The position numbers and the translations under genes were made by a program. The notes below the pieces were generated by a model. That model did not search any database. It was not told the DNA's origin and saw only the letters and a program-made list of their open reading frames with translations. Below, one piece after another: positions 16,829-56,819 of a stretch of 64,000 nt of DNA (position 1 is its first letter; each line of letters starts with the position of its first letter). Source of the stretch: Henricia sp. BOLD:AAB3569 (taxonomy: Eukaryota > Echinodermata > Asteroidea > Spinulosida > Echinasteridae); assembly GCA_037783545.1 (NCBI GenBank), contig JBBELK010000216.1:248001-312000 (forward strand). The letters are read 5' to 3'.

Positions 16829-17480
16829 CAGGATTGTTGAGTATTTCTACAGATTTGCCGAAGCATAAATTTTAGTAAATTTCATGTAGTACAAATCCCT
16901 GTTTTTAGGCCAAGAAAGAAAATAGCTGTGTTTCCTGTTACCCGCACCAACGTAGAAAATCGTGCAAAACCTATTTTTTGGTTTGCTCAATAAAAAATAA
17001 AAACATATTGTGCCTACATCACCTCTATTTTTGTTACCCCTTCAATGCATAAAAAAGTGGCTCACTCTTGTACATTAATATGTGCAAGTGGTAAAAAAAA
17101 ATACTGAATGTCATCCCACCCTGAATATTTTCTTTTATGTACATGATGTAATAGGAAACACAGGTGTTTTTTTTCTTGGCCATATAACAAGATGTGGCAG
17201 TAATTCCTTCAATTAGGAACTTCTGTATTATGGACACTTTTTTTTTTGCAAATGATGAAATTTCTTAGGCTCAACAAACCCCGTTTCATAACGAACAAAC
17301 AAGAAGACATCAGGCATATACTTATGTATCAATTGTATTATTTACAATAAAAATTAAAGGAGAAATATTTTACAGTGTGTTCATTCTTGAGTGGTATATT
17401 TAGTTTAACCCATAACCATGCATACAGCAATATGCCCAGAAAATGGGAAATTCTTCACAAAAAGCATATGGAATGGTGCT

Positions 17481-17615
17481 TTAAAGGCACTGGCTCGTCA
17501 GCATTGCGCGCGCCAAATTCGTGCCACGAAATACGCAGCTCCATGCCTTTGCTATGGAACTGCGTGATTCGTGGCACGAATTTGGCGCGCAATGCTGACG
17601 AGCCTGTGCCTTTAA
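17481..17615. mobile_element. TTAA-type palindromic MITE, full copy
   Basis: A nearly perfect hairpin runs from TTAAAGGCACTGGCTCGTCA to its inverse GACGAGCCTGTGCCTTTAA. The arms contain GCGCGCCAAATTCGTGCCAC and AATACGCAGCTCCATGCC. TTAA at both borders resembles the target site of piggyBac-type elements; that assignment is inferred. Confidence 0.85.
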
Positions 17616-27200: not shown

Positions 27201-29603
27201 TTTATATGCGATTGACATTTGAATTCTTCAAAATCTGCTTACATCATCTTCCTCTCCTTCTTCACTACTGGAATCATCATCATCAGAATCATCATCATCA
27301 GATTCGTGCCTTGCCTTAGTAGATGAATTCTCAGTGGCAGATTGTTGCCGAAAACCAGGGGGCAGAGGCGGACCTTGTAAAGTAAACAACATAAAACACA
27401 AAAATAAATAATAACAGTGGCGTACTGTGGCGGAGCGGTCTAGTGGATCGTATTCAAAACCTGGGTTAGTTCCAAAGGTAGTGGGTTCGAATCCCGGTCT
27501 AGTCCGGTCCATCCATGGTGCGTGTACCCTTGGGCAAGTTACTTTGCCACGCATTGCTTCTCTCCACCCAGGAGCAAAATGGGTACCTGAGAGGGTAGCG
27601 AAGGTTGATGTGTTTGATTAGCCATTGAGTGCCTAAGGCAGTCGGGGCTGTATACTCCCCAGGGAGCTGAGAGATATGGAGTGATTTAGTGGAGCCCTAT
27701 GATCAGGGTGATAATGTAGGCGCCTTGATCGGGATTTCCACGGATAAGTGCGCGGTACAAATCCATATCATTATCATTATAACAGCACACTGTTTCAGTA
27801 CGCGCACATCCTGACTGCACTTTTCAAATCAGCTACAGACAAGATTTTTATTCCTAGTAGATTTATTGGATTTCAATTTGCAGCCAGTAGGCTGAATTAC
27901 GTGATGTTTCTTCCACCTGAACATTGCACATAGGTGGGTGGTGCCATTGGCAGCTGATGGCCAGAGACACCGGATAATCCCCTTACTCTGGGATCATTTA
28001 AGTGCATTAAACAACACACTGGACCAACAGCTTTACATCCATTCTGAAGGAATGTGGTTAAGTGCCTTGCTCAAAGGCACAGGTACCACAGGTGGGTGTC
28101 AAACCCGCAATACCAAGATTTCACCTGAGTGTTGCAACTCAACGACCCAAACTACTTAGATATGTAAATACCTTACCAATTGTTTCCGAGTCGCTGTCAC
28201 TTGAGTCATCCGATTCAGATGGATCACTTCGTCTTGCGCCATCTTTGACTGTTCTTGTGCTCCGTTTTACTGGCCCCTCTGGTTTCTTGGCGCTAAGTTG
28301 CTTGGCTGTACGTCGCGTTTGCTCAAACATGGCACTCACGTCAAAGGTTCTGGGTTTTTTACCTTCAGGAAAAAAATGAAACACTATCGTTGTGAGGTGA
28401 TTCTATAACAAGCTACAAAAACGGCAGTTTGTGAAAGTCAGACCCTCCGGATCTTCCGGATCTTTGTTAAAAATTGTTATTTAACAAACAGAAAGTACCT
28501 AGTTTGACTTCTAAATACGCTTACATACCTTTTACCACCATGTATTGCACCAATTAGTAATCATACACCACATCAACTTTCCACAAGTGAAATTTTCGAA
28601 GATATGGGCGTAGGAAGTGCAGGACACTAAGAAAAAAGAAATGTTTTTTTTCCAAGTCGGATCTTTAAAAATAAGGCCCGTACATGGCGGTAAAAGGTAT
28701 GTAAGCGTATTAAGAAGTCAAACTAGGCACTTTCTGTTCGTTAAATAGCCATTTTTGAAAAAGATCCGGAAGATCTTGAAGGATCAGGAGGGTCCGTTTT
28801 TCACCTGCACGTACCCTACAAAAACACAAGTAAAGCAGTATTGTCGTCAGTAAACACATTCGGTGGTAATGGAAACATTACATTCATTCCATTGTAAACC
28901 CATCAATATGGTGTGTAACATAACAATCAAATTAAAATGAAATAAATTTAAAGAATTTATAACAAAAACCAGGAAAGCCTCCACATACATGACATAGGCC
29001 TACATACCAAAACCAGAGAAACCCATGACCGCTGCCATATCATCATTCTGCAGGGTTGAAGGTTCCTTTACGGGGTCATTTTCTTCTGCAACCATGCTGG
29101 AGTGGTCCCTTGCACCTAGAAATTGAAAAAGTTACTGCAAACATTAAACAAAATGAGATGCAGTGTGCAAAGTTTATCAGTTTATAAGGCCTACATCATA
29201 GAAAAGAAATTCAACATGTTCAAGGAAATTATCAAATGATTGTCACTTCTCTTCAAAATATTAACACTTTTTGGTGGTTATTGGGTCATATTAAGGAGAA
29301 TAAATGGCGACCAGTGAACGGAATTCCTCCCCACCACCCCCCACAAAGAAAATGCATCATATGTCGTACCAAAGGTTTTATCACGAAAATGGTGCAGTGC
29401 TTAGCAAATGGGTTTCGTCTGCCACCAGACGATGCACTGATGAAATGGGAATTCTAAGATTTATTTTATGGGGCAACAACCAATAAATTCCATCAGGAAA
29501 ATGTTAATAACACTTTCCCTACCACTCTCCGTTTTTTACTAAAAAGAAACGTACGGTTGCGAAGTTGTCGCATTTCTTCTAAATCGTCGTCGGAATCCGC
29601 CAT
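18215..29603 (-). CDS. WDR70: WDR70, WD40-repeat protein (17 coding exons)
   Basis: WDR70 (gastrulation-defective 1 homologue) is a nuclear WD40 scaffold linked to chromatin and DNA-damage response in other eukaryotes. Exons in transcript order: 29603-29555, 29115-29008, 28362-28177, 27373-27243, 26583-26524, 26332-26199, 25327-25174, 24250-24174, 23717-23540, 22992-22893, 22473-22389, 21992-21854, 21408-21308, 20834-20755, 20444-20325, 19349-19187, 18329-18215. All borders fit splice consensus and phases close to 659 aa (human about 654). The N-terminus has the family motif MGFSGFGKKPRTFD and AMFEQTRRTA, then a Ser/Asp/Glu-rich region with PPLPPG. WD repeats follow (GGYDYEMKMWDF, TVRIWDF, SLQLWDV, DTLKLWD, RCLWHPKLNQI). 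The tail has DDSNPREAILRHAKEA and DVPHWAKKQK. The start is the first ATG of the frame. Several introns are loaded with MITEs and SINEs. Confidence 0.95.
18511..18659. mobile_element. 'GACCCTTTGCA'-family MITE
   Basis: It runs from ATAGAGCTTCTACACCGGCG to GTGCAAAGGCTCTAT, with GGCCATGACAGGGGGCA and TGCCCCCGTCATGGCC as inner inverted repeats. It lies in the intron between WDR70 coding exons 16 and 17. Confidence 0.8.
18676..18958 (+). mobile_element. tRNA-derived SINE, 'TTTTCCTCCCACTT' family
   Basis: The head is GGTTGGCATAGTGG with B-box GGGTTCAATTCC. The body GTATGTGGATTGGG..CCCTACTTGACCG and tail TACAACAACA match the copy at 7057-7357 along most of its length. It is antisense to WDR70 inside the last intron. 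Confidence 0.8.
18971..19177. mobile_element. MITE with GCCGTC ends abutting a WDR70 donor
   Basis: Inverted ends: GCCGTCAAAAGTTGTCAACA and the inverse of GCCGTCCAAAGTTGTCAGCA, continuing through TTTTCACGG.TCTAC. The right end lies about 8 bp from the splice donor of the exon at 19187-19349. A relative occurs at 22202-22383. Confidence 0.8.
19648..19775. mobile_element. 'GACCCTTTGCA'-family MITE
   Basis: It contains AATGACAGGGGGTAAGTTTT, the signature GCACAGTGACAATGTGATTG and the right end CATGGCCGCTCTTGCAAAGG. The left terminus is eroded. It lies in the intron between WDR70 coding exons 15 and 16. Confidence 0.7.
19971..20298. mobile_element. Candidate element with TAGGGAGTTTTCGATT ends
   Basis: The left end TAGGGAGTTTTCGATTTG matches the inverse of the right end (TAGTGAGCTTTCGATTGG) at 15 of 18 positions. 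The interior has CGACGACGG-type repeats. It ends close to the WDR70 exon at 20325. TIRs of this type occur in hAT-like MITEs, but no clear 8-bp duplication was found. Confidence 0.45.
22202..22383. mobile_element. GCCGTC-type MITE, truncated, abutting a WDR70 donor
   Basis: The left part (GCCGAGTAAAAAGTTGTCAA..TTTTTACAG.TCTAC) and right part (CTGTAGAACTGTGAA) are the arms of the family seen at 18971-19177. The right terminus is cut short and ends about 4 bp from the donor of the exon at 22389-22473. Confidence 0.7.
23248..23388. mobile_element. Palindromic MITE with TTTCACAAA arms
   Basis: The left arm GTGTCGATTTCACAAAGACT and the right arm AAGTTTTTGTGAAACCAAC are inverted, with GCGATGGATT / AATCCATCGC further inward. 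It lies in the WDR70 intron between exons 22893 and 23717. Confidence 0.7.
23864..24083. mobile_element. Palindromic MITE, 'AGGGTTGTAGTCG' family, copy 1
   Basis: The ends are GAGGGTTGCAGTCGAGTCC and the inverse of CCAGGGTTGTAGTCGCGTCC. The interior consists of repeated ACAAGTCC/GGACTTGT words. A second copy is at 44960-45186. Confidence 0.75.
24393..24735 (-). mobile_element. tRNA-derived SINE, 'GGTCCAGTGTGTT' family, reverse
   Basis: The minus-strand head TGGCCGAGTGGTTAGGGCC is followed by B-box GGGTTCGAATCC, then GCCCTTGGGCAAGGCAC, CCGTTGGTCCAGTGTGTTAG and a tail of (AAT)n. It sits head-to-head with another copy at 24764. The closest relative in the window is 41567-41936, which even shares the same tail sequence. 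Confidence 0.85.
24764..25105 (+). mobile_element. tRNA-derived SINE, 'GGTCCAGTGTGTT' family
   Basis: The head is GGTACCATAGCCAAGTGG, with B-box-like GGGTTTGATACC. The body carries AAGGGATGTAAAGTTG, TTGGTCCAGTGTGTTGTG and CACCTATGTATCTCGATG. The tail differs from the copy at 24393, so two subfamilies are present. Confidence 0.8.
25443..25554. mobile_element. TTAA-type palindromic MITE, diverged copy
   Basis: The arms ACAGGCTCGTCAGCAATGCG and GCTGACGAGCCTCTGCCTTTAA are present, but the left TTAA border is lost. It lies in the WDR70 intron upstream of exon 25327-25174. Confidence 0.75.
25795..26145 (+). mobile_element. SINE body interrupted by a MITE
   Basis: The left part (AAGGCACTTTACCCCAATTG, GGATGGGATGTAAAAC, GTCCAGTGTTTTGTG) and the right part (GCCTATGTATCTCAGTG) join as one 'GGTCCAGTGTGTT' SINE once the MITE at 25942-26108 is removed. 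The tRNA-like head is missing. Confidence 0.75.
25942..26108. mobile_element. TAAAGC-family MITE nested in a SINE
   Basis: The ends TAAAGCCCGCCGCACA and TGTGCGGCGGGCTTTA are exact inverses, and further inward ATCGGACACCGGACCATCGG pairs imperfectly with CCGGTAAGTGGTCCGATG. TA at each border may be the target duplication. The insertion splits the SINE at 25795-26145, so it is the younger of the two. Confidence 0.85.
26658..26687. repeat. Poly-C/poly-A tract
   Basis: About twenty C residues are followed by A residues, in a WDR70 intron. Confidence 0.9.
26742..27003 (-). mobile_element. tRNA-derived SINE with 'TTCGCTTCAACTAGGTGG' body
   Basis: On the minus strand a B-box-like GGTTTCAAGCCCC lies near the head, followed by TGTGTCCCTGGGCAAGGTAC. 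The body includes CCACCTAGTTGAAGCGAAAT and the tail is (ATT)n. Related to 15783-16272. Confidence 0.7.
27417..27778 (+). mobile_element. tRNA-derived SINE, 'GGAGCGGTCTAGTGG' head, long body
   Basis: A-box GTGGCGGAGCGGTCTAGTGG and B-box GGGTTCGAATCCC are intact-looking. The body includes ACCCTTGGGCAAG, GGGTACCTGAGAGGGTAGCG and GCGCGGTACAAATCC, with a (TATCAT)-like tail. It lies between WDR70 exons 3 and 4, antisense to the gene. Confidence 0.8.
27931..28158 (-). mobile_element. 'GGTCCAGTGTGTT' SINE, reverse copy
   Basis: The minus-strand body has GTGCCTTTGAGCAAGGCAC, AGCTGTTGGTCCAGTGTGTT and CCGGTGTCTCTGGCC. The head is degenerate. Its 5' end is close to the WDR70 exon at 28177-28362. Confidence 0.75.
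28423..28815. mobile_element. 393-bp MITE ('GACCCTCCGGATC' family) with 9-10 bp target duplication
   Basis: The subterminal inverted repeats read TGTGAAAGTCAGACCCTCC and the inverse of GGTGAAAAACGGACCCTCC. Longer internal arms include AAGTACCTAGTTTGACTTCT and AGAAGTCAAACTAGGCACTT. The direct repeat CTACAAAAAC flanks it at 28413-28422 and 28816-28825. A second copy is at 34144-34517. It lies in a WDR70 intron. Confidence 0.88.
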
Positions 29604-31219: not shown

Positions 31220-34140
31220 ATGATCCTGCTTATGAGATCAAATCCTATAGTGGCGATGTTTGGCCGTAATTACGCGATTGACCAAGGCGTTGTCAAAATG
31301 GTATCCAAGCCATTTCTGACAAGAAAAATGACCGCCGATGTTTTGTGGCAAGTGTACGGTCTTCGGGCGGAAATCATTACGTGGTTACCAAGTTACTGCG
31401 ATCAAAACTTCCAAGTGGTGGTGACGGAGGGGGTCTGGGCGAGCGAGAAAAGGGGGAGTCACGGTGGCAAGTATATTTTGAAGATTATCAACACTGACGA
31501 CTCGCTGCACAGGGCCGACTCGTACGCGGAGATTGTGTCCATTCTCGAGGCTCTTCGGGGGGAGAATGGGGTGCTGTACCCGGCGCCGTTCAAGAATATC
31601 CACGGTCGATATATGGAGCTACAAAAATTCCGGAGTGGTGAGAACATCTTGCTTTGAGTTATATTTATTTATTGACTTATTCCATTTATTTACCCAGGGT
31701 GTGCCTAAAACAGTTTCGTTTGAGGTCCTGCAAATCACCCATAATTGGTACAATGAAATAACTGTTTCTGTACGCTTTAAGTTTAACAACGACATTTCAG
31801 ATTACCAACGAATGTTCAGACGCAGTAACATGATTTCGGCGTGTAAAGCCCAAAATCGTGACCTTTCGCTATCCGTTTTTCATTTAGGTTTGGACGCGTC
31901 GACAACAACATTTGAGGCTATCTTTAGGACCGATGACGTGTTAAAAATACACCAAAAGTCGTCGTATTGGCCTACTTTTGTGCGACCAAAACCTCCCTAT
32001 AATGCAGAATTCCACAACAGTTGACACAAAATGTAACATTTTAACTCCATGATATAACAGTTGTTTGACGTAAAATATAACGACGCCAATGTTAAGTAAC
32101 AAAATTGAATTTTCTTAGTGCCTGTTTTCAGCACAGCCTTTACGGAATATCTTCCTCCATGATACATGTACGTCTAGCGCGGCCCTAGGCCCACGAAGGT
32201 ACTAGGTGGATATATCCTCATGTGTTTTTAATGATTGAAAGTGGTTTCCCAGTAGAAAATAATTATTTTTATTTGAACAACTGCCACTCAAATTTAATGT
32301 TTGTGTGTAGATATGGCACCAAGGTTTAAAATGCAAACTCATTCTACAGCCAATTTTCATTGGCGTAGGTAACCCGGGACACCAAACTCCTATCCAATAC
32401 CATGGAACAAATTATAAGCCTTTATGCATGGTCTTTTGTTTTGAATATTTTTCAGGAATCAGAAAACTAAATATTGAAGAAAATGATGCTGCCCCCTAGC
32501 CCTATAATCACAGGTCACAGTCCATTACTGAGAATTTGTTGTCATAAATAAGTGGTGATTTTTGAAGCAGAGTGTCGTACGTAACTGGGACACCAACCAT
32601 TTTTGACCCCTAATTTTGGGAATTACCCATATATCATGTAAACAATTTTTATCAGACTGGCACTTGTAGGCCTATTTATTCTATGATAGGCCTAATGGGA
32701 CGGTCAAGGTTAAAGATTAAAGGAAAATGGTTTTGCTCTAACAGAAACAGACGGATCCTACGGCATCTTCCGCATCCTACTCCTGTCATATATTCCCGGG
32801 ATAATCTTGTCCGAGGTCCATCTAAGCAACCAAATCATCCAAAATGTCGGCAAAGCAGTGGCTAATCTCACGACACAACTTATGGTAAGACCTGACCGTG
32901 CAATCTTGGACCATTATTGTACAAGTAGGTCAGTGAATTAGACGCTTCGTGCAGAAGACAGTGGTCGCAGGTTCGAATATCGTTTGATTTGGCAAGTTTT
33001 CGAAGTTACAAAAAGTAAACAGATAGCGACTCAACTTTTCGAGTATTTTCCAATACGAGATCTGCCACCATAAAAGGAGACACATAATTATAGTCCAATC
33101 ACGACCCTCTTGCGAAACCTCGTTTTGCCCAATGGTGGACATTCCTGTTGGCCGGAGGAGTAAAAACCACTACAAAATTAATCCTAACTTTCGACTGATT
33201 TTCCTCGCGAGATATCCGTTTCGTTTATTAGGAAACAAATATCACATCAATTTAATGTATCTACAAATATATGGACACTAGTCATCATTAAATCAATGTC
33301 TTTCCAGAAAAACCGCAAGTTGCAAAATTGCCTTACGAGTTTCTTACCAAATCTTCGACTTGTTTTCCTCTTTAAGGCGTTGAAGTGCGAGACTGAGCAT
33401 TTAAGACGGCGTGCGGAAACCGATAAATGGTGTTTGACCAGCGTGGCCAAAGTGCGACCATTTATCGCCGCAGTACCAGACGCGAAACACCGTCTGCTGG
33501 CTGCAGACGTCTTGAACAGGTTCCTTCGAGACGTGAAGCCGCTGGAAAATTGCATGCCCAAAGGTGACATTTCTTAAAACAGACTCCAGTGTTATAAATT
33601 ACACAATTGTTTGGTAATATCAGGAATGTGACAAATATTTTCTTTCCATTTTCAGGCATCGTTCACGTGGACTTGAATCGAGCAAACATTTTAGTCAAAC
33701 CCGCTCAAAAAACCACCAATCAAGACTGGAGTGACGATGACGTCACCGACATGCTCCACCAATCAGTGAGCTACAAAGTCAGCGGGATCATTGATTTTCT
33801 AGACATGGCGTACGAGTGTGTTGTATACGATGTAGCTGGAAGCCTTGGGGATATTATGCTGGGACGGAAAGACCAAGATCCAGTGATGGTTGCACGCCAC
33901 TACCTGGCCGGGTACACCTCCGTGCGGCCCCTTAACCCAGCCGAGATGAGCTCGGTGCTTATCGCGACGGCGGCCAGGTTGGCGCAAATTCTCGTCTTGG
34001 GGCACGAGTATTTCCGTCAGTCTGGGGAAAGCGATCAGTACATCATGCGCATTGCGAATGACGGAGGATGGGAGCGGCTGGAGAAATTGTGGCAGACGGC
34101 AAGATGCGAAGTAGAAGCCTTGTGCGGCGAGTTGTTCTAA
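31220..34140 (+). CDS. HYKK: Hydroxylysine kinase (HYKK) gene, apparently missing an internal exon
   Basis: HYKK phosphorylates 5-hydroxy-L-lysine with GTP and belongs to the aminoglycoside-phosphotransferase-like kinases. Visible exons: about 31220-31637 (N-lobe: WQVYGLRAE, LPSYCDQNFQV, GGKYILKIIN), 33377-33563 (LRRRAETDKWCLTSV..VKPLENCMPK) and 33656-34140 (catalytic loop GIVHVDLNRANILV, metal-binding GIIDFLDMAYE, then LAGYTSVRPLNPAE). The second and third join in phase. The first ends in phase 1 but the second begins in phase 0. The segment expected between them (the conserved VR..YLPG and VP.TP..L region) is not visible in 31638-33376. The usual HGD and DFGD are HVD and DFLD here, keeping the catalytic Asp, Asn and metal Asp. 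The locus could be a damaged gene, an allele with a deletion, or have a diverged exon I missed. The start codon is uncertain (31220 or a later in-frame ATG). Confidence 0.75.
31638..33376. other. Large HYKK intron / missing-exon interval
   Basis: No frame in this 1.7 kb resembles the middle part of hydroxylysine kinase. A plus-strand open stretch to about 32024 has no recognisable family. A tRNA-like remnant is present at 32915-32995. Nothing else was identified. Confidence 0.5.
32915..32995 (+). repeat. tRNA-like remnant
   Basis: TAGGTCAGTGAATTAGACGC resembles a tRNA D-arm/A-box and GCAGGTTCGAATATCG a B-box. The acceptor stem does not close convincingly, so this is a SINE head or tRNA pseudogene and not a functional tRNA. 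Confidence 0.4.
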
Positions 34141-34143
34141 AAC

Positions 34144-34517
34144 GGCAGTCTGTGAAAGTCGGACCCTCCGGATCTTTGTTAAAAATTGATATTTAACGAA
34201 CAAAAAGTACCTAGTTTGACTTCTAAATACGCTTACATACCTTTTACCACCATTTATTGCACCAATTTGTAATCAAACACCACATCGACTATCCACAAAG
34301 TGAAATTTTCGAAGAAATAGGCGTAGGAAGTGCAGGACACTAAGAAAAAGAAATTGGTTTTTTTCCACGCCGGATCTTTAAAAAATAAGGCCTGTACATG
34401 GCGGTAAAAGGTATGGAAGCGTATTAAGAAGTCAAACTAGGCACTTTCTGTTCATTAAATAGCCATTTTTGAAAAAGATCCGGAAGGATCCGGAGGGTCC
34501 GTTTTTCACCCACACCC
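34144..34517. mobile_element. 'GACCCTCCGGATC' MITE at the HYKK stop codon
   Basis: It is a second copy of the element at 28423-28815, very similar along its whole length, with arms TGTGAAAGTCGGACCCTCC and GGAGGGTCCGTTTTTCACC. The flanking 9-mers are TTCTAAAAC (34135-34143) and TTATAAAAC (34518-34526), a target duplication with one mismatch. The left 9-mer contains the HYKK stop codon TAA, so the HYKK 3' UTR starts almost immediately in MITE sequence. Confidence 0.88.
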
Positions 34518-34654
34518 TTATAAAACAAAACATTCGCTGGTGGTGTGTAAAGATCATTGCTAAAATGTATGAAAACATGTGTAGACCTAGTAACCTTGGC
34601 AACAAACAAATCGTGACGTTTTTACTTTTGTGCTCTTCCCACCGAGAACGTCAC

Positions 34655-38900: not shown

Positions 38901-39628
38901 TAATTTGGGGTGTTGTTGAAACCCGGAGGTCGGAGGTAACCCGGAGGTAGAATTTGTTGTGACCGTGTAGTACATGCTACAACCTACCTCCGGCTTGTTA
39001 TTTTAATACTGCGTAGCTCCGGGCCACCGTCAACGCACCAACTACACGTTAGCAAAAACAATCTACCTCCGGGTACCTTTGGGTACCTCCGACCTCCGGG
39101 TTTTATAAATTTCCGTTAATTTGGTGCCAGTAAAAGGCAGTATTAGCCGGTTAAAGGCAGAGGCTCGTCAGCAATGCTCGCGCGCCAAATTCGTGCCACG
39201 AAATGCGCAGCTCCATGCCTTTGCTATGGAGCTGCATATTTCGTGGCACGAATTTAGCGCGCGCGCATTGCTGACGAGCCTGTGCCTTTAAATACAGATA
39301 AGCGATCAAATTCTTGTTTGACCACGCCCACCTATCTGCGACCGACCGGCGACCACACTTGACTTACACCATGGAGGAAGAAACACACGCACTGACCATG
39401 CTGACGCAGTTTCCGTTCTAAAAAAACTTTTCGGGTGTTACATTTGACGGTCTTGTGAATATAAAATGAGTTGCACTGATTCCGACTCATCTTCGTTTTG
39501 CACCGTGGCCCTTCTAGCTTACCATTCCCTTGAGCTTGAGTTCCCTCCGTACCAGCGTGGATAACGGAGGGGAAAATCGTGACGAGAGTGATGAATGTTG
39601 CTGTCCACGTACACATGTTGGCCGCCAT
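35915..39628 (-). CDS. TXNDC12: TXNDC12 (ERp18/ERp19-type thioredoxin, 6 exons)
   Basis: This is a small ER-lumen thioredoxin-fold oxidoreductase that catalyses disulfide exchange. Exons in transcript order: 39628-39523, 38565-38505, 38405-38353, 37329-37256, 36688-36535, 35976-35915, giving 169 aa (human 172). The N-terminus is a signal peptide (MAANMCTWTATFITLVTIF then PSVIHAG). Mature motifs are GFGDDIEW, the active site HKSWCGACK with CGAC, FIMVNVLDDEEP and PDGGYIPRILFLD (cis-proline region). The C-terminus is GGDEL, a KDEL-type ER-retention signal, where human ends in EDEL. The ATG at 39628 has A at -3 and G at +4. Introns are crowded with MITEs, two of which lie within about 22 bp of splice sites. 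It is convergent with HYKK. Confidence 0.96.
36159..36307. mobile_element. TATAGACC-ended palindromic MITE, copy 2
   Basis: It carries TATAGACTATCAGATAGC at one end and the inverse of TATAGACCGTATCGAATAGC at the other, with the same centre as 30320-30471 but reversed (CATGTCCTCAAGGAACAA). It is in the last TXNDC12 intron. Confidence 0.82.
36704..36877. mobile_element. Pogo-like MITE next to TXNDC12 exon 5 acceptor
   Basis: The right end read inward is CAGTCAAACCCTGTTAATAA, preceded by TA. The left end CAGGCGAACCTCGATAATAA is its diverged inverse. The left end lies about 16 bp from the acceptor of exon 36688-36535, so it forms part of the branch/polypyrimidine region of that intron. Confidence 0.7.
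36978..37131. repeat. 150-bp G-rich tract in a TXNDC12 intron
   Basis: There is an almost uninterrupted run of G with scattered A and T, including GGGGAGG and GGTGAGG words. On the transcribed minus strand it is C-rich. The plus strand could form many G-quadruplexes. Its length may be poorly determined in assembly. Confidence 0.9.
37440..37795. repeat. Repeat-like block rich in GACTTGACTC / GAGACTCG words
   Basis: ACTTGACTCA, GACTCGAGACTCGGGACTCG and GACTTGACTTGAGACTCG recur, and the right edge reads ACTCGTTACAACCCTGG, resembling the end of the MITEs at 23864 and 44960. It is probably a degenerate member of that family. The left end is not defined. Confidence 0.45.
37981..38321. mobile_element. 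341-bp mini-foldback with internal tandem repeats and 9-bp target duplication
   Basis: The terminal arms start ACCGGTGTGAAGTTGGTTAC and end with the exact inverse. Each arm contains copies of a unit with GAGCTGTTACTTATTC (two on the left, three on the right, inverted). GCCACATTT directly repeats at 37972-37980 and 38322-38330. The right border is 21 bp from the donor of TXNDC12 exon 38353-38405. The architecture, repeats stacked inside TIRs, mirrors the large foldback at 46285 on a small scale. Confidence 0.92.
38919..39102. mobile_element. Palindromic MITE with AACCCGGAGGTCGGAGGT ends
   Basis: The left arm AAACCCGGAGGTCGGAGGTA and the right arm TACCTCCGACCTCCGGGTTT are inverted. Inner GTAACCCGGAGGTAGA pairs with TCTACCTCCGGGTACC. 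It is in TXNDC12 intron 1. Confidence 0.8.
39151..39291. mobile_element. TTAA-type palindromic MITE, full copy
   Basis: It runs from TTAAAGGCAGAGGCTCGTCA to GACGAGCCTGTGCCTTTAA with nearly perfect arms and the centre CATGCCTTTGCTATGG. It is in TXNDC12 intron 1. Confidence 0.87.
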
Positions 39629-40890: not shown

Positions 40891-40924
40891 TACAAATAAT
40901 AAGCATGCTCATGCACTCATTTCT

Positions 40925-41065
40925 TTAAAGGCACAGGCTCGTCAGCAATGCGCGGGCGCCAATTTCGTGCGACGAAATACGCAGGTCCATGCCTTTGCTA
41001 CATGGTGCTGCGTATTTCGTGGCACGAATTTGGCGCGCGCATTGCTGACGCGCCTGTGCCTTTAA
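40925..41065. mobile_element. TTAA-type palindromic MITE, full copy
   Basis: It runs from TTAAAGGCACAGGCTCGTCA to GACGCGCCTGTGCCTTTAA and lies 86 bp past the UBE2U stop codon. It is very similar to the copies at 17481 and 39151. Confidence 0.87.
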
Positions 41066-41151
41066 ACCATCTTAAATTCTTTTAAATGGCATTTTATCCG
41101 GTAAAAACCCGTAAAATTGCTCAGCAAAAAACAAGTATCTGGTACACGACT

Positions 41152-44100
41152 TTAAAACTCCTCCATGAGTTCTCCTTCATCTAGATTGGCCGTCCAATCA
41201 ACGAGGTCATCAACCTCTTTCTCCCAAGGCTCACCTGTCTCACTTTGGGCAGTAGAGGGCGGTGGTACTGTGGTGAAAGTTAAGAAGCACAAAAAGTTAA
41301 TTTTAGAACAATTAGTTTTGCGTCAGGAGTTTTCACTGTAAAATTTAATGCTGCACAACATTTAGTACTTAGATTAAGTGCAAGTACTCACTCAGATTTG
41401 TACTGGAAGTGCGTAACGGTAGGTAAATCTTTTTCATCTTATTGATGTGATCTAGTTTCTTGTCCTGTGAGTCCGGTTTACTGGGTTTGGCAGCAAAGTT
41501 ACCGTACATCAAGGAATTGTGCCTGCCGAGAAAAGGTAAAGTGTGTAGTTTTATATTAGTTTACGGTGGGGTACCTTGGCCGAGTGGTTAGGGCCACTGA
41601 CTCGCAATCATGGGTGAAAACTTGGGGTTGCGGGTTCGAATCCGGGTTCGAATCCGGCTGCGGTACCTGTGCCCTTGGGCAAGGCACTCAACCACACTTG
41701 CTCCATCCTTCGGAAGGGATGTAAAGCCGTTGGTCCAGTGTGTTAGGTAATGGTAACGCACTCTAAAGATCCCAGAGCATTCTTTCGTGAAGAGCACGGG
41801 GATTCCCCGGTGTCTCTGGCCATTTCTAATTCTAATTCTTCATGGGTTTCCTCACGCTTACGAGTGACAGTGCAATGAGCACTATTGAGGAATCTTTGGT
41901 ATGAATACCAGAAAGAAATAATAATAATAATAATATAAACAACACAATATTGTAATCAATAGCAAAGAATGAGAAGAAAACAAGATTTTTTTAAGGGGGA
42001 GTGAGTGGGTAGATGGGTGGGTTCGTTGCTTGGTTATTTTCCTTGAATCAGCATGGGATATAAAAACTAATAAATGAGTAGCTGCAATTAATTCATTTTT
42101 TTTTTACAGCTGTTTAAGTTTTATTTTAAAATCTTTATTTGTGTTTTCTGAAGATTTTATGCTGCCTGAAAAATTGATGACAATCCTCGCATTCTTTTAA
42201 AATAGAAGTTTTTTAAAATTTCAGAATAATCTTGAAAACCTAACCTCATTCACACATTTTCTGCATAAAACGTTAACTACAGCAGATTTTGTTTCATAGT
42301 TTGCATCAATGTATGATAAAGAATGAAATCTTGGTGTGCTTACTCTTGTAACTGTTTCTTCATATGCTCTTGTAATTCCACTAAAGGGAGACCAAAATGG
42401 GCCGTCTGCAACTTGGGGTCGTTCTTAATTGCTTCCAACACTGAAACATAGAAAAAATAAATACACCGTAAAGAATTTAAAAATAAAAATAAAAAATGTC
42501 TTATCAAATTAAACCTATTAAGCAGTGGCATCGGCAGACTTTTTGTAGTGGGGGCAAAACATTTTATTGGTGGGCTATTTTGCATTCTAACCCCTTGCCC
42601 CCTTCCCCCTTCCCTGTTGACGCTTCTTCAATTAGTGTAATTACTAAGACACTCACATGGATTTTTCATGCTGGCCTCTGACTTGCTTGTAGCAATACCA
42701 CTCCATGTTGTCAGGTAATCATCAAAGGATATCCTGGCCTGTCTCGGCTGGGTGGATTTCGGGCGCTCTATAGGCTCACTGTCATCAGGTTCGATACCAA
42801 GTTTTTGGTTAGTATCGTCTTGCAAACTCTGCCCAGCTGAACAAAAAATAGAGGAGGAATCTTTCATGTTTGGTTTTCGTTAACACGGATAAAATAGAAA
42901 GAAGGCAAAGTTATAATCACAATATTGCAAGTCTCATCCAAACTTTGCTTGTTCAAGTTAACTGTCATAGATAAAAACAAGGGATGGAATGCAATATAAC
43001 TGTCTTTGAGACACAACATATGCCATAACTGAAATGAGGGGTTTAAAGTCTGTGTGTCTTATTGCAGGATAAACTAATTTATTATGTCTCAGAAGAAGTC
43101 TTAAGTGTCAAGATATCTTAACTTTCTTTCTTCAGTCCACCCAACTTTAGAAGTGATGTTAAAAGCTATTTAAATTGTTTAATATTTTAACAAGATAACG
43201 GCAGTATTTACCATGAACCCTCTGGCTCGCTGTTACACATTCCACCACCATCTGTCTGTAGAGATCTGGTGAGTCTCTTAAGATGCTACAAGCCTCTGGG
43301 TTAACTGCATCGTCCATTACAGGATAGGACAACAGACACTACAAGGAAAAACAATCAAACCAACTAAAAACAAACATTTATTTAAGAGCAACTTCGCAGT
43401 AGCTCCAGAGCAGCCAAGTAACCCTCCTAGACTTTGCAACAGATTCCTTGAAATTGACCGACTCATGACTTCCACTAAAACAGACTAAAAAAAACTCCTG
43501 GATTATCGATAACAATCTCACAGATTATTGGATGACTAAAGTTGGAAAATTTATTTCTTTTCTGGCCACTTTGTCCAAAATCTGGAGAAAAAAATTGGCA
43601 GCTCTATAGCTTTACAAATTGTCTGCGTACAAACATTAAAACCTTTAATCAGATACAAATGGCAGAGAGTGAGATTGGAGGCTGGCAAACATGAAGCCAG
43701 AGAATGATTATAGGACCCTTTGCACCGGCGGCCATGATGGAGGAAGTTTTCCATATTTAAATGTTACAATAGACACATGGTGACAATGTGACTGCCCCCT
43801 GTCATGGCCGCCCATGCAAAGGGTCTATTGATTTATGGCACAATGAGCAGGGGTAACACAAATGGTCTTCAGACACTCAAACTAAAACTGATCACCTGTA
43901 TTGCAAGGAGGACCGACTGTATGCTGTATGATTCTTTCCATGCTTCATGATCATCAAGGAAATCCACACAGGGACGGCCGGTGTTCATATCAACTGAGAA
44001 AATAAAACAAACACAAACAAGAGTTTTATCACCAACTCAAACTTCTAAGCACTTCCTGATATTAGGATTTACACACAGTTACAAATATTTTTTTGAAGAA

Positions 44101-46274: not shown

Positions 46275-46398
46275 GGCCTACTACGGATGGGTGTAAAACG
46301 CGGAACGACGGAATGACGGAACGACTAAAAAATGGGTGTTACAACAGATATTGTCCCCCGGCCCCATATACCGATATACACAATAAGCACTGTTCATA

Positions 46399-48428
46399 CG
46401 TCTGCATAGAATTAAATGTTTTCGTATCAAGAACGCTTTGTTCCAGGATAACCTTTCTGGTTTTGTATTCTACAGTCCTCGGACTATCTGTACATCATCT
46501 TAAAATTCTGGAACAACCCGTCCCAAGGGGCCTAAAACGGCCATTCCTTAACGGTTATTCTCAATGCACGCAATTAGTGCGGTAACTGCATTTTATTAGC
46601 CTATATTTTACGTCTGCATAGAATTAAATGTTTTCGTATCAAGAACGCTTTGTTCCAGGATAACCTTTCCGGTTTTGTATTCTACAGTCCTCGGACTATC
46701 TGTACATCATCTGAAAATTCTGGAACAACCCGTCCCAAGGGGCCTAAAACGGCCATTCCTTAACGGTTATTCTCAATGCACGCAATTAGTGCGGTAACTG
46801 CATTTTATTAGCCTACATTTTACGTCTGCATAGAATTAAATGTTTTCATATCAAGAACGCTTTTTTCCAGAATAACCTTTCCGGTTTTGTATTCTACAGT
46901 CCTCGGACTATCTGTACATCATCTTAAAATTCTGGAACAACCCGTCCCATGGGGCCTAAAACGGCCATTCCTTAACGGTTATTCTCAATGCACGCAATTA
47001 GTGCGGTAACTGCATTTTATTAGCCTACATTTTACGTCTGCATAGAATTAAATGTTTTCGTATCAAGAACGCTTTGTTCCAGAATAACCTTTCCGGTTTT
47101 GTATTCTACAGTCCTCGGACTATCTGTACATCATCTTAAAATTCTGGAACAACCCGTCCCATGGGGCCTAAAACGGCCATTCCTTAACGGTTATTCTCAA
47201 TGCACGCAATTAGTGCGGTAACTGCATTTTATTAGCCTACATTTTACGTCTGCATAGAATTAAATGTTTTCGTATCAAGAACGCTTTGTTCCAGGATAAC
47301 CTTTCCGGTTTTGTATTCTACAGTCCTCGGACTATCTGTACATCATCTTAAAATTCTGGAACAACCCGTCCCAAGGGGCCTAAAACGGCCATTCCTTAAC
47401 GGTTATTCTCAATGCACGCAATTAGTGCGGTAACTGCATTTTATTAGCCTACATTTTACGTCTGCATAGAATTAAATGTTTTCGTATCAAGAACGCTTTG
47501 TTCCAGGATAACCTTTCCGGTTTTGTATTCTACAGTCCTCGGACTATCTGTACATCATCTTAAAATTCTGGAACAACCCGTCCCAAGGGGCCTAAAACGG
47601 CCATTCCTTAACGGTTATTCTCAATGCACGCAATTAGTGCGGTAACTGCATTTTATTAGCCTACATTTTACGTCTGCATAGAATTAAATGTTTTCGTATC
47701 AAGAACGCTTTGTTCCAGGATAACCTTTCCGGTTTTGTATTCTACAGTCCTCGGACTATCTGTACATCATCTTAAAATTCTGGAACAACCCGTCCCAAGG
47801 GGCCTAAAATGGCCATTCCGTAACGGTAATTCTCATTGCACGCAATTAGTGCGGTATAACTGCATTTATAGGCCTACATTTTACGTCTTCATAGAAATTC
47901 AATTTTCCGGTTCAAGAACGCTTTGTTCCAGGATAACTTTTACGGTTTTGTATTCCACAGTCCTCGGACTATCTTTACGTCATCGGGAAATTCTGGAACA
48001 ACCCGTCCCAAGGGTCCTATAAAATGGCCATTCCGTAACGGTAATTCTCATTGCACGCAATTAGTGCGGTATAACTGCATTATAGGCCTACATTTTACGT
48101 CTGCATAGAAATTCATTTTTTTCTGTATCAAGAACGCTTTGTTCCAGGATAACCTTTACAGTTTTGTATTCCACAGTCCTCTGACTATCTTTATATCGTC
48201 GGGAAATTCTGGAACAACCCGTCCCAAGGGTCCTAAAATGGCCACTCCTTATAACGGTCATTCTCAATGCACGCAATTAGTGCGGTATATAGGTCTACAT
48301 TTTACATCTTCATAGAAATGCATTTTTTTCCGTATCAAGAACGCTTTGTTCCAGGATTACTTTTACGGTTTTGTATTCCACAGTCCTCGGACTATCTTTG
48401 CATCATCAGGAAATTCTGGAACAACCTG
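46399..48428 (+). repeat. Left arm: tandem ~212-bp units (about 9.6 copies)
   Basis: Units start with CGTCTGCATAGAATTAAATG at 46399, 46611, 46823, 47035, 47247, 47459 and 47671 (exact 212-bp spacing), then with diverged starts near 47884, 48098 and 48305; the last is partial. Constant words are CAAGAACGCTTTGTTCCAGG, CAGTCCTCGGACTATCTGTA, GGAACAACCCGTCCCA and GCACGCAATTAGTGCGGTA. The outer seven copies are almost identical and the inner three clearly diverged. Short open frames across the array are by-products of the periodicity. Confidence 0.95.
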
Positions 48429-49479
48429 TCAAGAAACAGAAAATAGCTTTATGTTCATTAAAGGCATTATAAAAGTCATCAATAACTCGATGTAAACATG
48501 ACTTTGTAGAGTGGTTTTAAGAAATGCAAATTGATCAGCTGTAAACATAATAGATAATCCAGAAGTTGAATTAATTTTTGACAAACAGAGATTGGTCTGT
48601 AATTACCTTTATCCTTTTTACAACCTTTCCCTTGTAAATCGGAGTGGTATACGCAGGGGCGGATCCAGGAATTTTTCCGGGGGGGGGGGGGGGGGGGGGT
48701 TTCGGCCCGTCAGATTTTGTTATATATATATATATACATATATATAAAGTACATGGACATCTTTTTTCTTGCGTAAAAATGGACGTATAATATTAACAAT
48801 AACATTTTTTGACAAGATTTTCAATTTTTGTAAAAATTTATTTTTAAGAGCAGGGCGGGGGGTGGGGGGGGGGGGGGGGGGGTGGTTTGACCCCCCCCCC
48901 CCCCCCCCCCCCCGGATCCGCGCCTGATACGGGAAAATCTCCAATCATCTGGAATAAATCCACTTTTATAAGAGACCGATTAAAAATGTACCAGAGTGTA
49001 AATGATGCACATATATAGCCTGAGAGTCTAGTATATCAAAGTCCAAAAAACATCAAGATTACTATCTGCACTCGGATGACGTAAGGACTTCAAGATTATA
49101 GACTCCTCAGGGATAGGGTCAAAACGAAGAGTATATAAATACACTCAGGATTCTTGCAAATTGAAGAAGCCTTTTTAAATGAGTGAGCTATTTTTTTTTT
49201 TTACCAATGCCAGTAAAAAATATCATTCATTTTAGAACAAGATCTGGATACGTACTGTTAATAAATGTATTATTTCCCGTGACTTTGTGAACCTCATGCC
49301 ATAACTTTTTAGGATTCTTACTGTATACTGGGCCTACTTGGCTGACACATGATCAAAATATTCACGTTTAGCTTTTCTAATTAATAAAGTAACGTGATCC
49401 ATGGTTTTTCTATAATCATTCAATGTATCCAGACAACCACTATAGAAGTGGAGAGTGATGGAGAGTTTAACAATGTCCG
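48429..49479. other. Spacer (loop) of the foldback element
   Basis: This is single-copy sequence between the opposed arrays. It contains no open frame suggestive of a transposase. A 273-bp MITE is nested at 48654-48926; the remaining about 780 bp is AT-rich and unrecognised. Confidence 0.6.
48654..48926. mobile_element. MITE with CAGGGGCGGATCC ends and 5-bp target duplication
   Basis: The left end CAGGGGCGGATCCAGG leads into a long poly-G run, and the right end is its inverse (CCGGATCCGCGCCTG) after a poly-C run. ATACG repeats at 48649-48653 and 48927-48931. A (TA)n microsatellite lies inside. The termini resemble 40721-40890. It is nested in the spacer of the foldback element. Confidence 0.85.
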
Positions 49480-52400
49480 AGGTCATCCAACGACAATCTA
49501 TTCCACGAACATTGAGAATTACCGTTATGGAATGGCCGTTTTAGGCCCCTTGGGACAGATTGTTCCAGAATTTCCCGATGATGTAAAGATAGTCCGAGGA
49601 CTGTGGAATACAAAACATTAAAAGTTATCCTGGAACAAAGCGTTCTGTTACGAATAAATCAAATTCTATGCAGACGTAAAATGTAGGCCTATAGGCCTAA
49701 TGCAGTTACCGCACTAATTGCGTGCATTAAGAATGACCGTTAAGGAATGGCCATTTTAGGACCCTTGGGACGGGTTGTTCCAGAATTTCCCGATGATGTA
49801 AAGATAGTCCGAGGACTGTGGAATACAAAACCGTAAAGGTTATCCTGGAACAAAGCGTTCTTGATACGGAAAAATGAATTTATTGCAGACAAAATATGTA
49901 TACTGCATTACCCCAGTAATTCCACGCATTGAGAATGACCGTTACGGAATGGTCATTTTAGGGCCCTTGGGACAGGTTGTTCCAGAATTTCCTGGTGATG
50001 TACGGATAGTCCGAGGACTGTGGAATACAAAACCGTAAAGGTTATCCTGAAACAAATTGTTCTTGATACGGAAAAATTAATTTCTATGCAGACGTAAAAT
50101 GTAGGCCTATAATGCATTTACCGCACTAATTGCGTACAATGAGAATGACCGCTATGGAATGGCCATTTTGGGACCCATGGGACGAGTTGTTCCATAATTT
50201 CGCGATGATATAAAGATAGTCCGAGGACTGTGGAATACAAAACCGTAAAGGTTATCCTGGAACAAAGCGTTCTTGATACGAAAAAATAAATTCCTATGAA
50301 GACGTAAAATGTAGACCTATATATATACCATTGCGTGCATTGAGAATGATCGTTATGGAATGGCCGTTTTTGGCCCCTTGGGACGGATTGTTCCAGAATT
50401 TCCTGATGATGTAAAGATGGTCCGAGGACTGTGGAATACAAAACCGTAAAAGTAATCCTGGAACAAAGCGTTCTTTATACGGAAAAATGCATTTCTATGA
50501 AGACGTAAAATGTAGACCTATATACCGCACTAATTGCGTGCATTGAGAATGACCGTTACGGAATGGCCATTTTAGGACCCTTGGGACGGGTTGTTCCAGA
50601 ATTTCCCGATGACGTAAAGATAGTCCGAGGACTGTGGAATACAAAACCATAAAAGTTATCCTGGAACAAAGCGTTCTTGATACGGAAAATTTAATTTCTA
50701 TGAAGACGTAAAATGTAGACCTATATACCGCACTAATTGCGTGCATTGGGAATGACCGTTACGGAATGGCCATTTTAGGACCCTTGGGACGGGTTGTTCC
50801 AGAATTTCCCGATGACGTAAAGATAGTCCGAGGACTGTGGAATACAAAACCATAAAAGTTATCCTGGAACAAAGCGTTCTTGATACGGAAAATTTAATTT
50901 CTATGAAGACGTAAAATGTAGACCTATATACCGCACTAATTGCGTGCATTGGGAATGACCGTTATGGAATGGCCGTTTTTGGCCCCTTGGGACGGGTTGT
51001 TCCAGAATTTCCCGACGATATAAAGTTAGTCAGAGGACTGTGGAATACAAAACTGTAAAGGTTATCCTGGAACAAAGCGTTCTTGATACAGAAAAAATGA
51101 ATTTCTATGCAGACGTAAAATGTAGGCCTATAATGCAGTTATACCGCACTAATTGCGTGCAATGAGAATTACCGTTACGGAATGGCCATTTTAGGACCCT
51201 TGGGACGGGTTGTTCCATAATTTCCTGATGATGTAAGGATAGTCCGAGGATTGTGGAATACAAAACCGTAAAAGTTATCCTGGAACAAAGCGTTCTTGAT
51301 ACGGAAAATTTAATTTCTATGAAGACGTAAAATGTAGACCTATATATACCGCACTAATTGCGTGCATTGAGAATGACCGTTATGGAATGGCCGTTTTTGG
51401 CCCCTTGGGACGGGTTGTTCCAGAATTTTCAGATGATGTACAGATAGTCCGAGGACTGTAGAATACAAAACCGGAAAGGTTATCCTGGAACAAAGCGTTC
51501 TTGATACGAAAACATTTAATTCTATGCAGACGTAAAATGTAGGCTAATAAAATGCAGTTACCGCACTAATTGCGTGCATTGAGAATAACCGTTAAGGAAT
51601 GGCCGTTTTAGGCCCCTTGGGACGGGTTGTTCCAGAATTTTAAGATGATGTACAGATAGTCCGAGGACTGTAGAATACAAAACCGGAAAGGTTATCCTGG
51701 AACAAAGCGTTCTTGATACGAAAACATTTAATTCTATGCAGACGTAAAATGTAGGCTAATAAAATGCAGTTACCGCACTAATTGCGTGCATTGAGAATAA
51801 CCGTTAAGGAATGGCCGTTTTAGGCCCCTTGGGACGGGTTGTTCCAGAATTTTAAGATGATGTACAGATAGTCCGAGGACTGTAGAATACAAAACCGGAA
51901 AGGTTATCCTGGAACAAAGCGTTCTTGATACGAAAACATTTAATTCTATGCAGACGTAAAATATAGGCTAATAAAATGCAGTTACCGCACTAATTGCGTG
52001 CATTGAGAATAACCGTTAAGGAATGGCCGTTTTAGGCCCCTTGGGACGGGTTGTTCCAGAATTTTCAGATGATGTACAGATAGTGCGAGGACTGTAGAAT
52101 ACAAAACCGGAAAGGTTATCCTGGAACAAAGCGTTCTTGATACGAAAACATTTAATTCTATGCAGACGTAAAATGTAGGCTAATAAAATGCAGTTACCGC
52201 ACTAATTGCGTGCATTGAGAATAACCGTTAAGGAATGGCCGTTTTAGGCCCCTTGGGACGGGTTGTTCCAGAATTTTAAGATGATGTACAGATAGTCCGA
52301 GGACTGTAGAATACAAAACCGGAAAGGTTATCCTGGAACAAAGCGTTCTTGATACGAAAACATTTAATTCTATGCAGACGTAAAATGTAGGCTAATAAAA

Positions 52401-53016
52401 TGCAGTTACCGCACTAATTGCGTGCATTGAGAATAACCGTTAAGGAATGGCCGTTTTAGGCCCCTTGGGACGGGTTGTTCCAGAATTTTCAGATGATGTA
52501 CAGATAGTGCGAGGACTGTAGAATACAAAACCGGAAAGGTTATCCTGGAACAAAGCGTTCTTGATACGAAAACATTTAATTCTATGCAGACGTAAAATGT
52601 AGGCTAATAAATTGCAGTTACCGCACTAATTGCGTGCATTGAGAATAACCGTTAAGGAATGGCCGTTTTAGGCCCCTTGGGACGGGTTGTTCCAGAATTT
52701 TAAGATGATGTACAGATAGTCCGAGGACTGTAGAATACAAAACCGGAAAGGTTATCCTGGAACAAAGCGTTCTTGATACGAAAACATTTAATTCTATGCA
52801 GACGTAAAATGTAGGCTAATAAAATGCAGTTACCGCACTAATTGCGTGCATTGAGAATAACCGTTAAGGAATGGCCGTTTTAGGCCCCTTGGGACGGGTT
52901 GTTCCAGAATTTTAAGATGATGTACAGATAGTCCGAGGACTGTAGAATACAAAACCGGAAAGGTTATCCTGGAACAAAGCGTTCTTGATACGAAAACATT
53001 TAATTCTATGCAGACG
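49480..53016 (-). repeat. Right arm: tandem ~202-215-bp units (about 17 copies)
   Basis: Read on the minus strand the unit is the same as in the left arm. On the plus strand unit ends (..CAGACG or ..AAGACG) fall near 49676, 49891, 50094, 50304, 50505, 50707, 50911, 51115, 51327, then at exact 212-bp spacing 51532, 51744, 51956, 52168, 52380, 52592, 52804 and 53016. The outer eight units are nearly identical. The inner ones vary in length and sequence, except two adjacent 204-bp units (50506-50911) that are near-identical to each other. Confidence 0.95.
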
Positions 53017-53139
53017 TATGAACAGTGCTTATTGTGTTATCGGTATATGGGGCCGGGGGACAATATCTGTTGTAACACCCATTTTTTAGTCGTTCCGTCA
53101 TTCCGTCGTTCCGCGTTTTACACCCATCCGGCCTACTAC

Positions 53140-56166: not shown

Positions 56167-56675
56167 TATTGTACTTTTTTAAATGAACTACATACATGTA
56201 ATTTGTAAAGAAAATTTTGTACATTTATAAATTCATGAATTGCAGTCCAGTGCTAAATTAGAAGATTTTGAAACGCATTTTTCTATATTTATACATCATG
56301 TACCGTATTCTATACAGGTGATTTTGAAACTACAATTATATGGATGAGTGGACACATTTTCATAACATTGATCTTCTTGGAAACGATCCAAATAAAAGTA
56401 TGTGTAGTCAAACCTCAGTGAATGATGATTGGCTGTACATTTTTGTGATCTATTCTTTTGTTTGTCCCTTGGGGGATTGGGAATTTGGGCAATATGTTTT
56501 GTATTGAAGGAAAAATTAGCCATTAATTTGTTAAAAAGCATCCAAGCAGACAGTGTTCTCGAAACGACCGGCTTTGTGTCCGGCTCGGGCCTGGTGCATC
56601 TCAAAATAACACTACCAAAGAAACATCTGATTTAAGTGATTTTAAGTTGAACTTTCAGCTCTGTCTAAACATGAT

Positions 56676-56819
56676 TTAAAGGCACAGCTCGTCAGCAATG
56701 CGCGCACGACAAATTTGTGCCACGAAATACGCAGCTAGCTCCATTCCTTTGCTATGGAGCTGCGTGTTGCGTGGCACGAATTTGGCGCGCGCGCGTTGCT
56801 GACGAGCCTGTGCCTTTAA
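56676..56819. mobile_element. TTAA-type palindromic MITE, full copy
   Basis: It runs from TTAAAGGCACAGCTCGTCAG to GACGAGCCTGTGCCTTTAA. The arms hold GTGCCACGAAATACGCAGCT and the inverse. It is the sixth member of the family in this window. Confidence 0.87.

What the first reader, a model, noticed from the sequence alone, without database searches (positions are those of the whole stretch)
46285..53129. Giant foldback element built from opposed arrays of a 212-bp unit
Seen: unique 113-bp inverted ends, opposite tandem arrays, a 1-kb spacer and a perfect 10-base flanking direct repeat (GGCCTACTAC). Known: foldback transposons with repeat-built arms exist in Drosophila (FB) and sea urchin (TU). 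The 212-bp unit and the 114-bp unique caps are not something I recognise as a named family. Inference: a non-autonomous DNA transposon that could fold into a stem of about 2 kb and that may be mobilised by a Mutator- or hAT-like enzyme. It occupies most of the shared upstream space of two genes.
Basis: partly seen in the sequence, partly recalled or inferred. Interest (0 to 1): 0.85.

Follow-up and report, generated by a model that had tools for sequence, protein, structure and literature searches.

The report
Foldback transposon family with modular arms
This is a jumping DNA element with long mirror-image arms made of a repeated 212-base unit; many copies sit in the same animal genome, a version of this site without it also exists there, and no moving enzyme was found inside it, so it is a new family of a known kind.

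Summary
The window holds a 6,845-bp element (46285-53129): a 112/113-bp cap, 9.6 plus 16.8 opposed ~212-bp units, a 1.07-kb core, and a 10-bp flanking duplication. In the host assembly (740.7 Mb) the cap's end motif occurs at 48 places, 42 of them as 21 facing pairs. Of 17 two-capped copies read at base level, 14 have exact 8-10 bp target duplications, 9 bp in 11. A contig with 95.7%-identical flanks lacks the element: an empty site. The core is a dead fragment of a LINE reverse transcriptase, shared family-wide; no transposase was found in the parts scanned. Duplication length points to a Mutator-like enzyme and away from hAT. Nineteen MULE-domain places were found, none within 20 kb of an end motif, so the driver is not identified. 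Closest known: Tetris of Drosophila virilis (~220-bp arm repeats), then Tm1, FB and Galileo. Cap type and outer unit type travel together, older units lie inside, and 5 of 16 complete copies have different ends, four of them with exact target duplications. New member of a known kind.

The parts
46275..46284 (.). left target-site duplication GGCCTACTAC
   Evidence: exact match to 53130-53139
46285..46396 (+). left cap, type A (GGATGGGTGT...), with three 8-bp repeats GGAACGAC/GGAATGAC/GGAACGAC
   Evidence: identical to the right cap but for 1 bp; end motif at 48 places in the genome, reversed control 0
46397..48436 (+). left array, 9.6 units of ~212 bp; units 1-6 and part of 7 type A, inner units type B
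48437..49505 (-). core: fragment of a non-LTR retrotransposon (LINE) ORF2, linker to start of reverse transcriptase, with stops and frame changes
   Evidence: family-wide core, 27 places in the genome; collinear tblastn to a LINE ORF whose RVT_1 match is E 4.5e-38
48654..48926 (.). nested 273-bp element (CAGGGGCGGATCC...GGATCCGCGCCTG) with 5-bp duplication ATACG
   Evidence: absent from the cores of L042 and L043, which show the empty site; its start is seen in 6 of the 16 complete copies, while L044 and L045 lack that part of the core
49506..53017 (-). right array, 16.8 units; outer 7 and part of 8 type A, inner units type B
53018..53129 (-). right cap, type A
53130..53139 (.). right target-site duplication GGCCTACTAC

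Best explanation
A non-autonomous foldback-type cut-and-paste transposon. A transposase made elsewhere recognises the caps (and perhaps sites in the arm units), cuts at GGA...TCC and inserts the element with a duplication of about 9 bp; the enzyme is most likely Mutator-like. The element shows no gene of its own: its middle is a dead LINE fragment taken up before the family spread. The arms grew from few units by tandem duplication and exchange units and whole ends with other copies. Shown: copies, ends, duplications, empty site, shared core, arm mosaicism. Inferred: the enzyme class, binding sites in the units, the growth of the arrays and the route of end exchange.
For: End motif at 48 places, 21 facing pairs by eye, reversed control 0. 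Exact target duplications in 13 of 16 complete copies: 9 bp in 10, 10 bp in 2 (window and L041), 8 bp in 1 (L031); none in L038, L040, L044. A 17th copy, 19.4 kb on C1087, has 9 bp TGAAATTTG (read by eye). The 360-bp flanks of the 16 copies give three short cross-matches, one of them within a single locus. A contig with 464 of 485 aligned bases identical to the two flanks has no element. The window's core is 99.4-99.8% identical to L034, L035 and L038 (98.1% to L032, 97.7% to L041), so spread was recent. An old relative has only one or two partial units per side (L055). Pfam scans of three non-repeat interiors gave 0 families. MULE duplications are given as 8-11 bp in PMC6446971 (passages read).
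Against: No transposase is linked to the caps: none of 19 MULE-domain places (E up to 0.001) lies within 20 kb of any of 48 end motifs, so the enzyme class is inferred from duplication length alone. Three of 16 complete copies have no duplication. Merlin-like enzymes also make 8-9 bp duplications (recalled) and my search for them did not complete. Four of the 21 facing pairs (on C7, C108, C359 and C9:726400-732040) were not read end to end, and six ends are single. The empty site differs from the filled one by small gaps near the junction, so it does not give the duplication length; whether it is an allele or a paralogue was not settled.
Confidence: 0.88

Rival explanations
1. Same element, moved by a transposase of another superfamily that makes duplications of about 9 bp, for example Merlin-like; or hAT with 8 bp.
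For: No linked transposase was found. The window copy alone allows an 8-bp reading, and L031 has 8 bp.
Against: With GGA ends the exact duplication is 9 bp in 11 of 17 copies read and 8 bp in one. hAT makes 8 bp (recalled). Merlin was not tested: the search did not complete.
Confidence: 0.2
2. Assembly artefact: inverted arrays made by mis-joining satellite reads.
For: Long near-identical inverted arrays are hard to assemble, and no reads were seen.
Against: The arms differ in length and inner sequence, the same plan recurs at unrelated sites with matched duplications, and a homologous empty site exists.
Confidence: 0.03
3. A palindromic satellite or inverted duplication made by DNA repair, not by transposition.
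For: L043 is a palindrome of 3.1-kb arms at 95.8%, and three of 16 copies lack duplications.
Against: Fixed ends, matched 8-10 bp duplications in 14 of 17 copies and unrelated flanks.
Confidence: 0.03

Closest known systems
Tetris, Drosophila virilis (PMC4079207; passages read)
   Same: Foldback; arms with an outer flanking domain, ~220-bp tandem repeats in varying number and an inner domain; middle with no apparent coding capacity; duplications of 8-10 bp; no autonomous copy found; placed in Mutator by its authors from duplication length.
   Different: Different host; no Tetris sequence was at hand to compare. Tetris repeats also form long satellites (up to 66 copies); of the unit matches listed here one (C1129) lies on a contig without an end motif (40 of 70 candidates scored, list cut).
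Tm1, root-knot nematodes (PMC3169594; passages read)
   Same: Mutator/foldback family, composite arms with varying tandem repeats, most commonly 9-bp duplications, mostly non-autonomous.
   Different: Unit about 14 bp; asymmetric outermost motifs; some Tm1 copies encode a Phantom-like transposase.
Galileo, Drosophila mojavensis (PMC3573991; passages read)
   Same: Long arms with a tandem repeat of about 210 bp in one subfamily; copies with two arms of different subfamilies.
   Different: P superfamily, 7-bp duplications. Its 12 chimeric copies lack matched duplications; here 4 of 5 mixed-end copies have exact ones.
FB of Drosophila and TU of sea urchin (recalled; foldbacks in fly and sea urchin are mentioned)
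   Same: Foldback plan with repeat-built arms.
   Different: Much shorter repeat units (recalled); sequences not compared.
Rehavkus (PMC6446971; passages read)
   Same: Mutator relatives with 9-bp duplications and a minisatellite near one end.
   Different: Encode a transposase; known there only from arthropods and annelids; minisatellite on one side.

Membership tests
Foldback-type DNA transposon | long inverted arms built of tandem repeats around a middle domain | tested here: met
Foldback-type DNA transposon | several copies at different sites with target duplications | tested here: met
   48 ends, 21 pairs; 14 of 17 copies read with 8-10 bp
Mutator-like (MULE) superfamily | 8-11 bp target duplication | tested here: met
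   9 bp in 11, 10 bp in 2, 8 bp in 1, none in 3 of 17
Mutator-like (MULE) superfamily | MULE transposase in the element or in a relative with the same ends | tested here: inconclusive
   19 MULE-domain places, none within 20 kb of 48 end motifs; 4 of 19 read, none with cap, unit or core at E below 0.1
hAT | 8-bp target duplication (recalled) | tested here: not met
   1 of 17 copies has 8 bp
P / Galileo | 7-8 bp target duplication (7 for Galileo; 8 for P, recalled) | tested here: not met
   1 of 17 copies has 8 bp, none 7
Merlin | Merlin transposase with matching ends | not tested
   PF12762 search not answered
Tetris family | sequence similarity of caps and units | not testable with these tools
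   no Tetris sequence held

The most novel reading that the evidence does not exclude
Element ends behave as exchangeable cassettes. The newer 'A' end (cap plus homogeneous 212-bp units) is copied onto other elements' arms by recombination in the unit arrays, without disturbing the insertion site, so that one end type sweeps through a family whose cores stay put. Repeat-built arms would then serve as homology for end replacement and not only as enzyme binding sites.
Probability: 0.35. Interest if true: 0.6.

Novelty: new member of a known kind. Interest (0 to 1): 0.42.

Why it matters
Large foldback elements are hard to see whole. This genome offers a recent family with complete copies of 2.8-9.1 kb (one of 19.4 kb), an old relative with only one or two partial units per side, and mixed-end copies, so the growth and turnover of repeat-built arms can be followed step by step. 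One copy sits between two head-to-head genes and is absent from a homologous contig, which would allow a direct test of its effect on both promoters if the two contigs prove to be alleles.

Tried and rejected
hAT as the driver: rejected on duplication length. Autonomous copy: looked for in L043's centre (6 frames), in L047's inner gap (4 of 6 frames) and in the interior of the C1087 copy (6 frames; the last ~0.6 kb before its units was not scanned); 0 Pfam families at E 0.01. Window reading frames in caps, arms and core: no match above a curated cut-off (best Pex16, E 0.018). The two non-unit gaps of L044 were listed for ORFs but not scanned; the other complete copies are by blast almost wholly cap, unit and core. 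MULE loci: 4 of 19 fetched; L052 has an open 479-aa MULE frame (PF10551 E 1.4e-10; FLYWCH 0.29, not significant), ends of ~16-bp repeats and a 10-bp direct repeat, but no cap. Homogenisation between the two arms of one element: not supported. Among 82 units at least 98% like the reference, identity is 99.0% between arms of one element and 98.9% between elements; 64 of 300 label shuffles reached the observed value. Cap derived from unit, as in Tetris: no match above shuffles (435 of 500 as high). LINE core by Pfam or PDB directly: no hit; shown through a LINE ORF of the genome instead. Rfam and tRNA scans of the window: 0. Exact end sequences in viral contigs: 0.

Rows left out of counts: L044, L045, L047, L048 from the core tree (short cores); L046-L050 from duplication counts (one end only in the fetched stretch; L047 was later completed as the C1087 copy); L044 gave only one typed unit per arm. 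In the core tree script the nested insert was cut from some rows only (L034 and L041 kept it), which column trimming may not fully remove.

Full report
What is there. The element runs from 46285 to 53129 between perfect 10-bp repeats. From outside in it has a 112/113-bp cap, an array of ~212-bp units, and a 1.07-kb core; then the same in reverse. The arrays hold 9.6 and 16.8 units. Outer units are 96-100% alike, inner ones 80-90% identical to them. The inverted repeat is 1,572/1,571 bp with one gap at 98.8%; with more gaps 2.15 kb at 95.3%.

It is a family. A 21-base end motif with up to 2 mismatches occurs at 48 places, 37 of them exact, with 0 in the reversed control; 42 of the 48 form 21 facing pairs on one contig and 6 are single (pairing by eye). 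Sixteen complete copies (15 plus the window) were read. All 16 have cap, units, core, units, cap, though L044 and L045 keep only part of the core, L044 is disrupted and L043 holds the core twice. Lengths are 2.8 to 9.1 kb.

It moves. With ends fixed at GGA, exact target duplications are 9 bp in 10 of 16, 10 bp in 2, 8 bp in 1 and absent in 3. A further copy of 19.4 kb on C1087 has a 9-bp duplication and 14.5 kb of non-unit sequence between its left cap and its units. The 360-bp flanks of the 16 copies show three short cross-matches, one of them within a locus. A query made of the window's two flanks without the element gave six rows: the two flanks in place, a stretch of contig C204 along the whole query, and three partial rows on C105 that I did not read. 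Over 501 bp of C204, 464 of 485 aligned bases agree (95.7%), with 101 gap columns and no element; the last 106 aligned bases towards the right-hand gene have no gap and one mismatch. This is an empty site. I infer another haplotype, but the test (is the gene there too?) did not complete. Gaps beside the junction hide the exact duplication length in that copy.

The core. On the minus strand it reads as a broken LINE protein. A 65-aa probe, mixed from L055 and window letters, matched all 16 complete copies and, weakly, long open frames elsewhere (1,026 aa, 40% identity, E 2.4e-5). The fetched part of one such frame (566 aa) matches RVT_1 with E 4.5e-38. That LINE aligns in order with the cores: residues 113-195 with the window core (E 7e-5) and 296-346 with L036 (E 0.002); in the window copy this second stretch was not reported. 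Direct Pfam and PDB searches of the broken protein found nothing. The core DNA occurs at 27 places, all candidates scored; by eye 25 lie within 9 kb of an end motif and two are old copies at 83%. So one LINE fragment most likely was taken up once and travels with the family. The window's core also carries a nested 273-bp insert; L042 and L043 show the site without it.

Arms as mosaics. Caps come in two types: A (GGATGGG...) and B (GGACCCG...), 84-90% alike over positions 7-113. Eight of 16 copies are A/A, five A/B, three B/B. All 21 A-capped arms begin with units of 95-100% identity and then, mostly through one intermediate unit, fall to 72-91%; the 11 B-capped arms begin with units of 79-89%. 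Exceptions: L039 right has an A block inside a B arm, and L031 left and L032 left show a second A block further in. Copies with nearly identical cores (L031, L033, L036, L037, L040; 99.3-100%) differ in end type. On the core tree the end classes need 5 changes where 3 is the least possible; the labels are still clustered (3 of 200 shuffles as low). Four of the five mixed copies have exact 8-9 bp duplications; L040 does not. Thus ends were exchanged while the rest of the element stayed much the same. Whether this happened in place (conversion) or in the donor before transposition is open. Within-element homogenisation of arms was tested and not supported.

Mechanism. Shown: copies, ends, duplications, empty site. 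Not found: coding capacity for a transposase in the parts scanned. Inferred: a transposase acting in trans. The 9-bp mode points to a Mutator-like enzyme; [quoted passage not shown] The genome has 19 MULE-domain places at E up to 0.001 (56 of 56 candidates scored), at least one with a long open frame and repeat-built ends (L052), but none lies within 20 kb of an end motif. For Galileo, secondary binding sites in arm repeats are reported or proposed (PMC3573991, passages); for this element that is a guess.

Age. Window core against L035 and L038: 99.7 and 99.8%. L036 and L037, 1.2 Mb apart on one contig, have identical cores and different 9-bp duplications. An old relative, L055, has cap-like stretches, a core at 81%, two partial units on one side and one on the other, which suggests that the arrays grew later.

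Place. Start codons read by eye put the element in 84% of the 8,140 bp between a UBE2U-like gene (name recalled; UQ_con E 2.3e-24; best solved chain 1yrv) and an FBXL-like gene (LRR matches; F-box match below its cut-off). No effect on them was tested.

Literature. No repeat library such as Repbase was available.

Noticed in passing
48654-48926: Nested 273-bp element with G/C-runs, ends CAGGGGCGGATCC, 5-bp duplication ATACG, inside the LINE core; its start is seen in 6 of the 16 complete copies.
   Followed up: partly
L057, L058, L047 (C1087:131930-151357): A 19.4-kb copy: matched 9-bp duplications, left cap directly followed by 14.5 kb of sequence with no Pfam family in the part scanned. Insertion or capture not resolved.
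   Followed up: partly
L043:407-7800: A double palindrome: arms of 3.1 kb that include the LINE core on both sides, around a 1.2-kb centre.
   Followed up: partly
L052:2569-5001: MULE with open 479-aa transposase frame, ends of ~16-bp repeats and a 10-bp direct repeat, 0.7 Mb away on the window's contig: a possible second foldback-like MULE family.
   Followed up: partly
window 17477-17615, 39151-39292, 40924-41066, 56675-56819, 25478-25560: Self-complementary repeat of about 140 bp in several copies, MITE-like.
   Followed up: no
window 28418-28829 and 34139-34530; 24387-24731 and 41565-41935: Two further dispersed repeat pairs at 88% and 90% identity.
   Followed up: no
   Followed up: no
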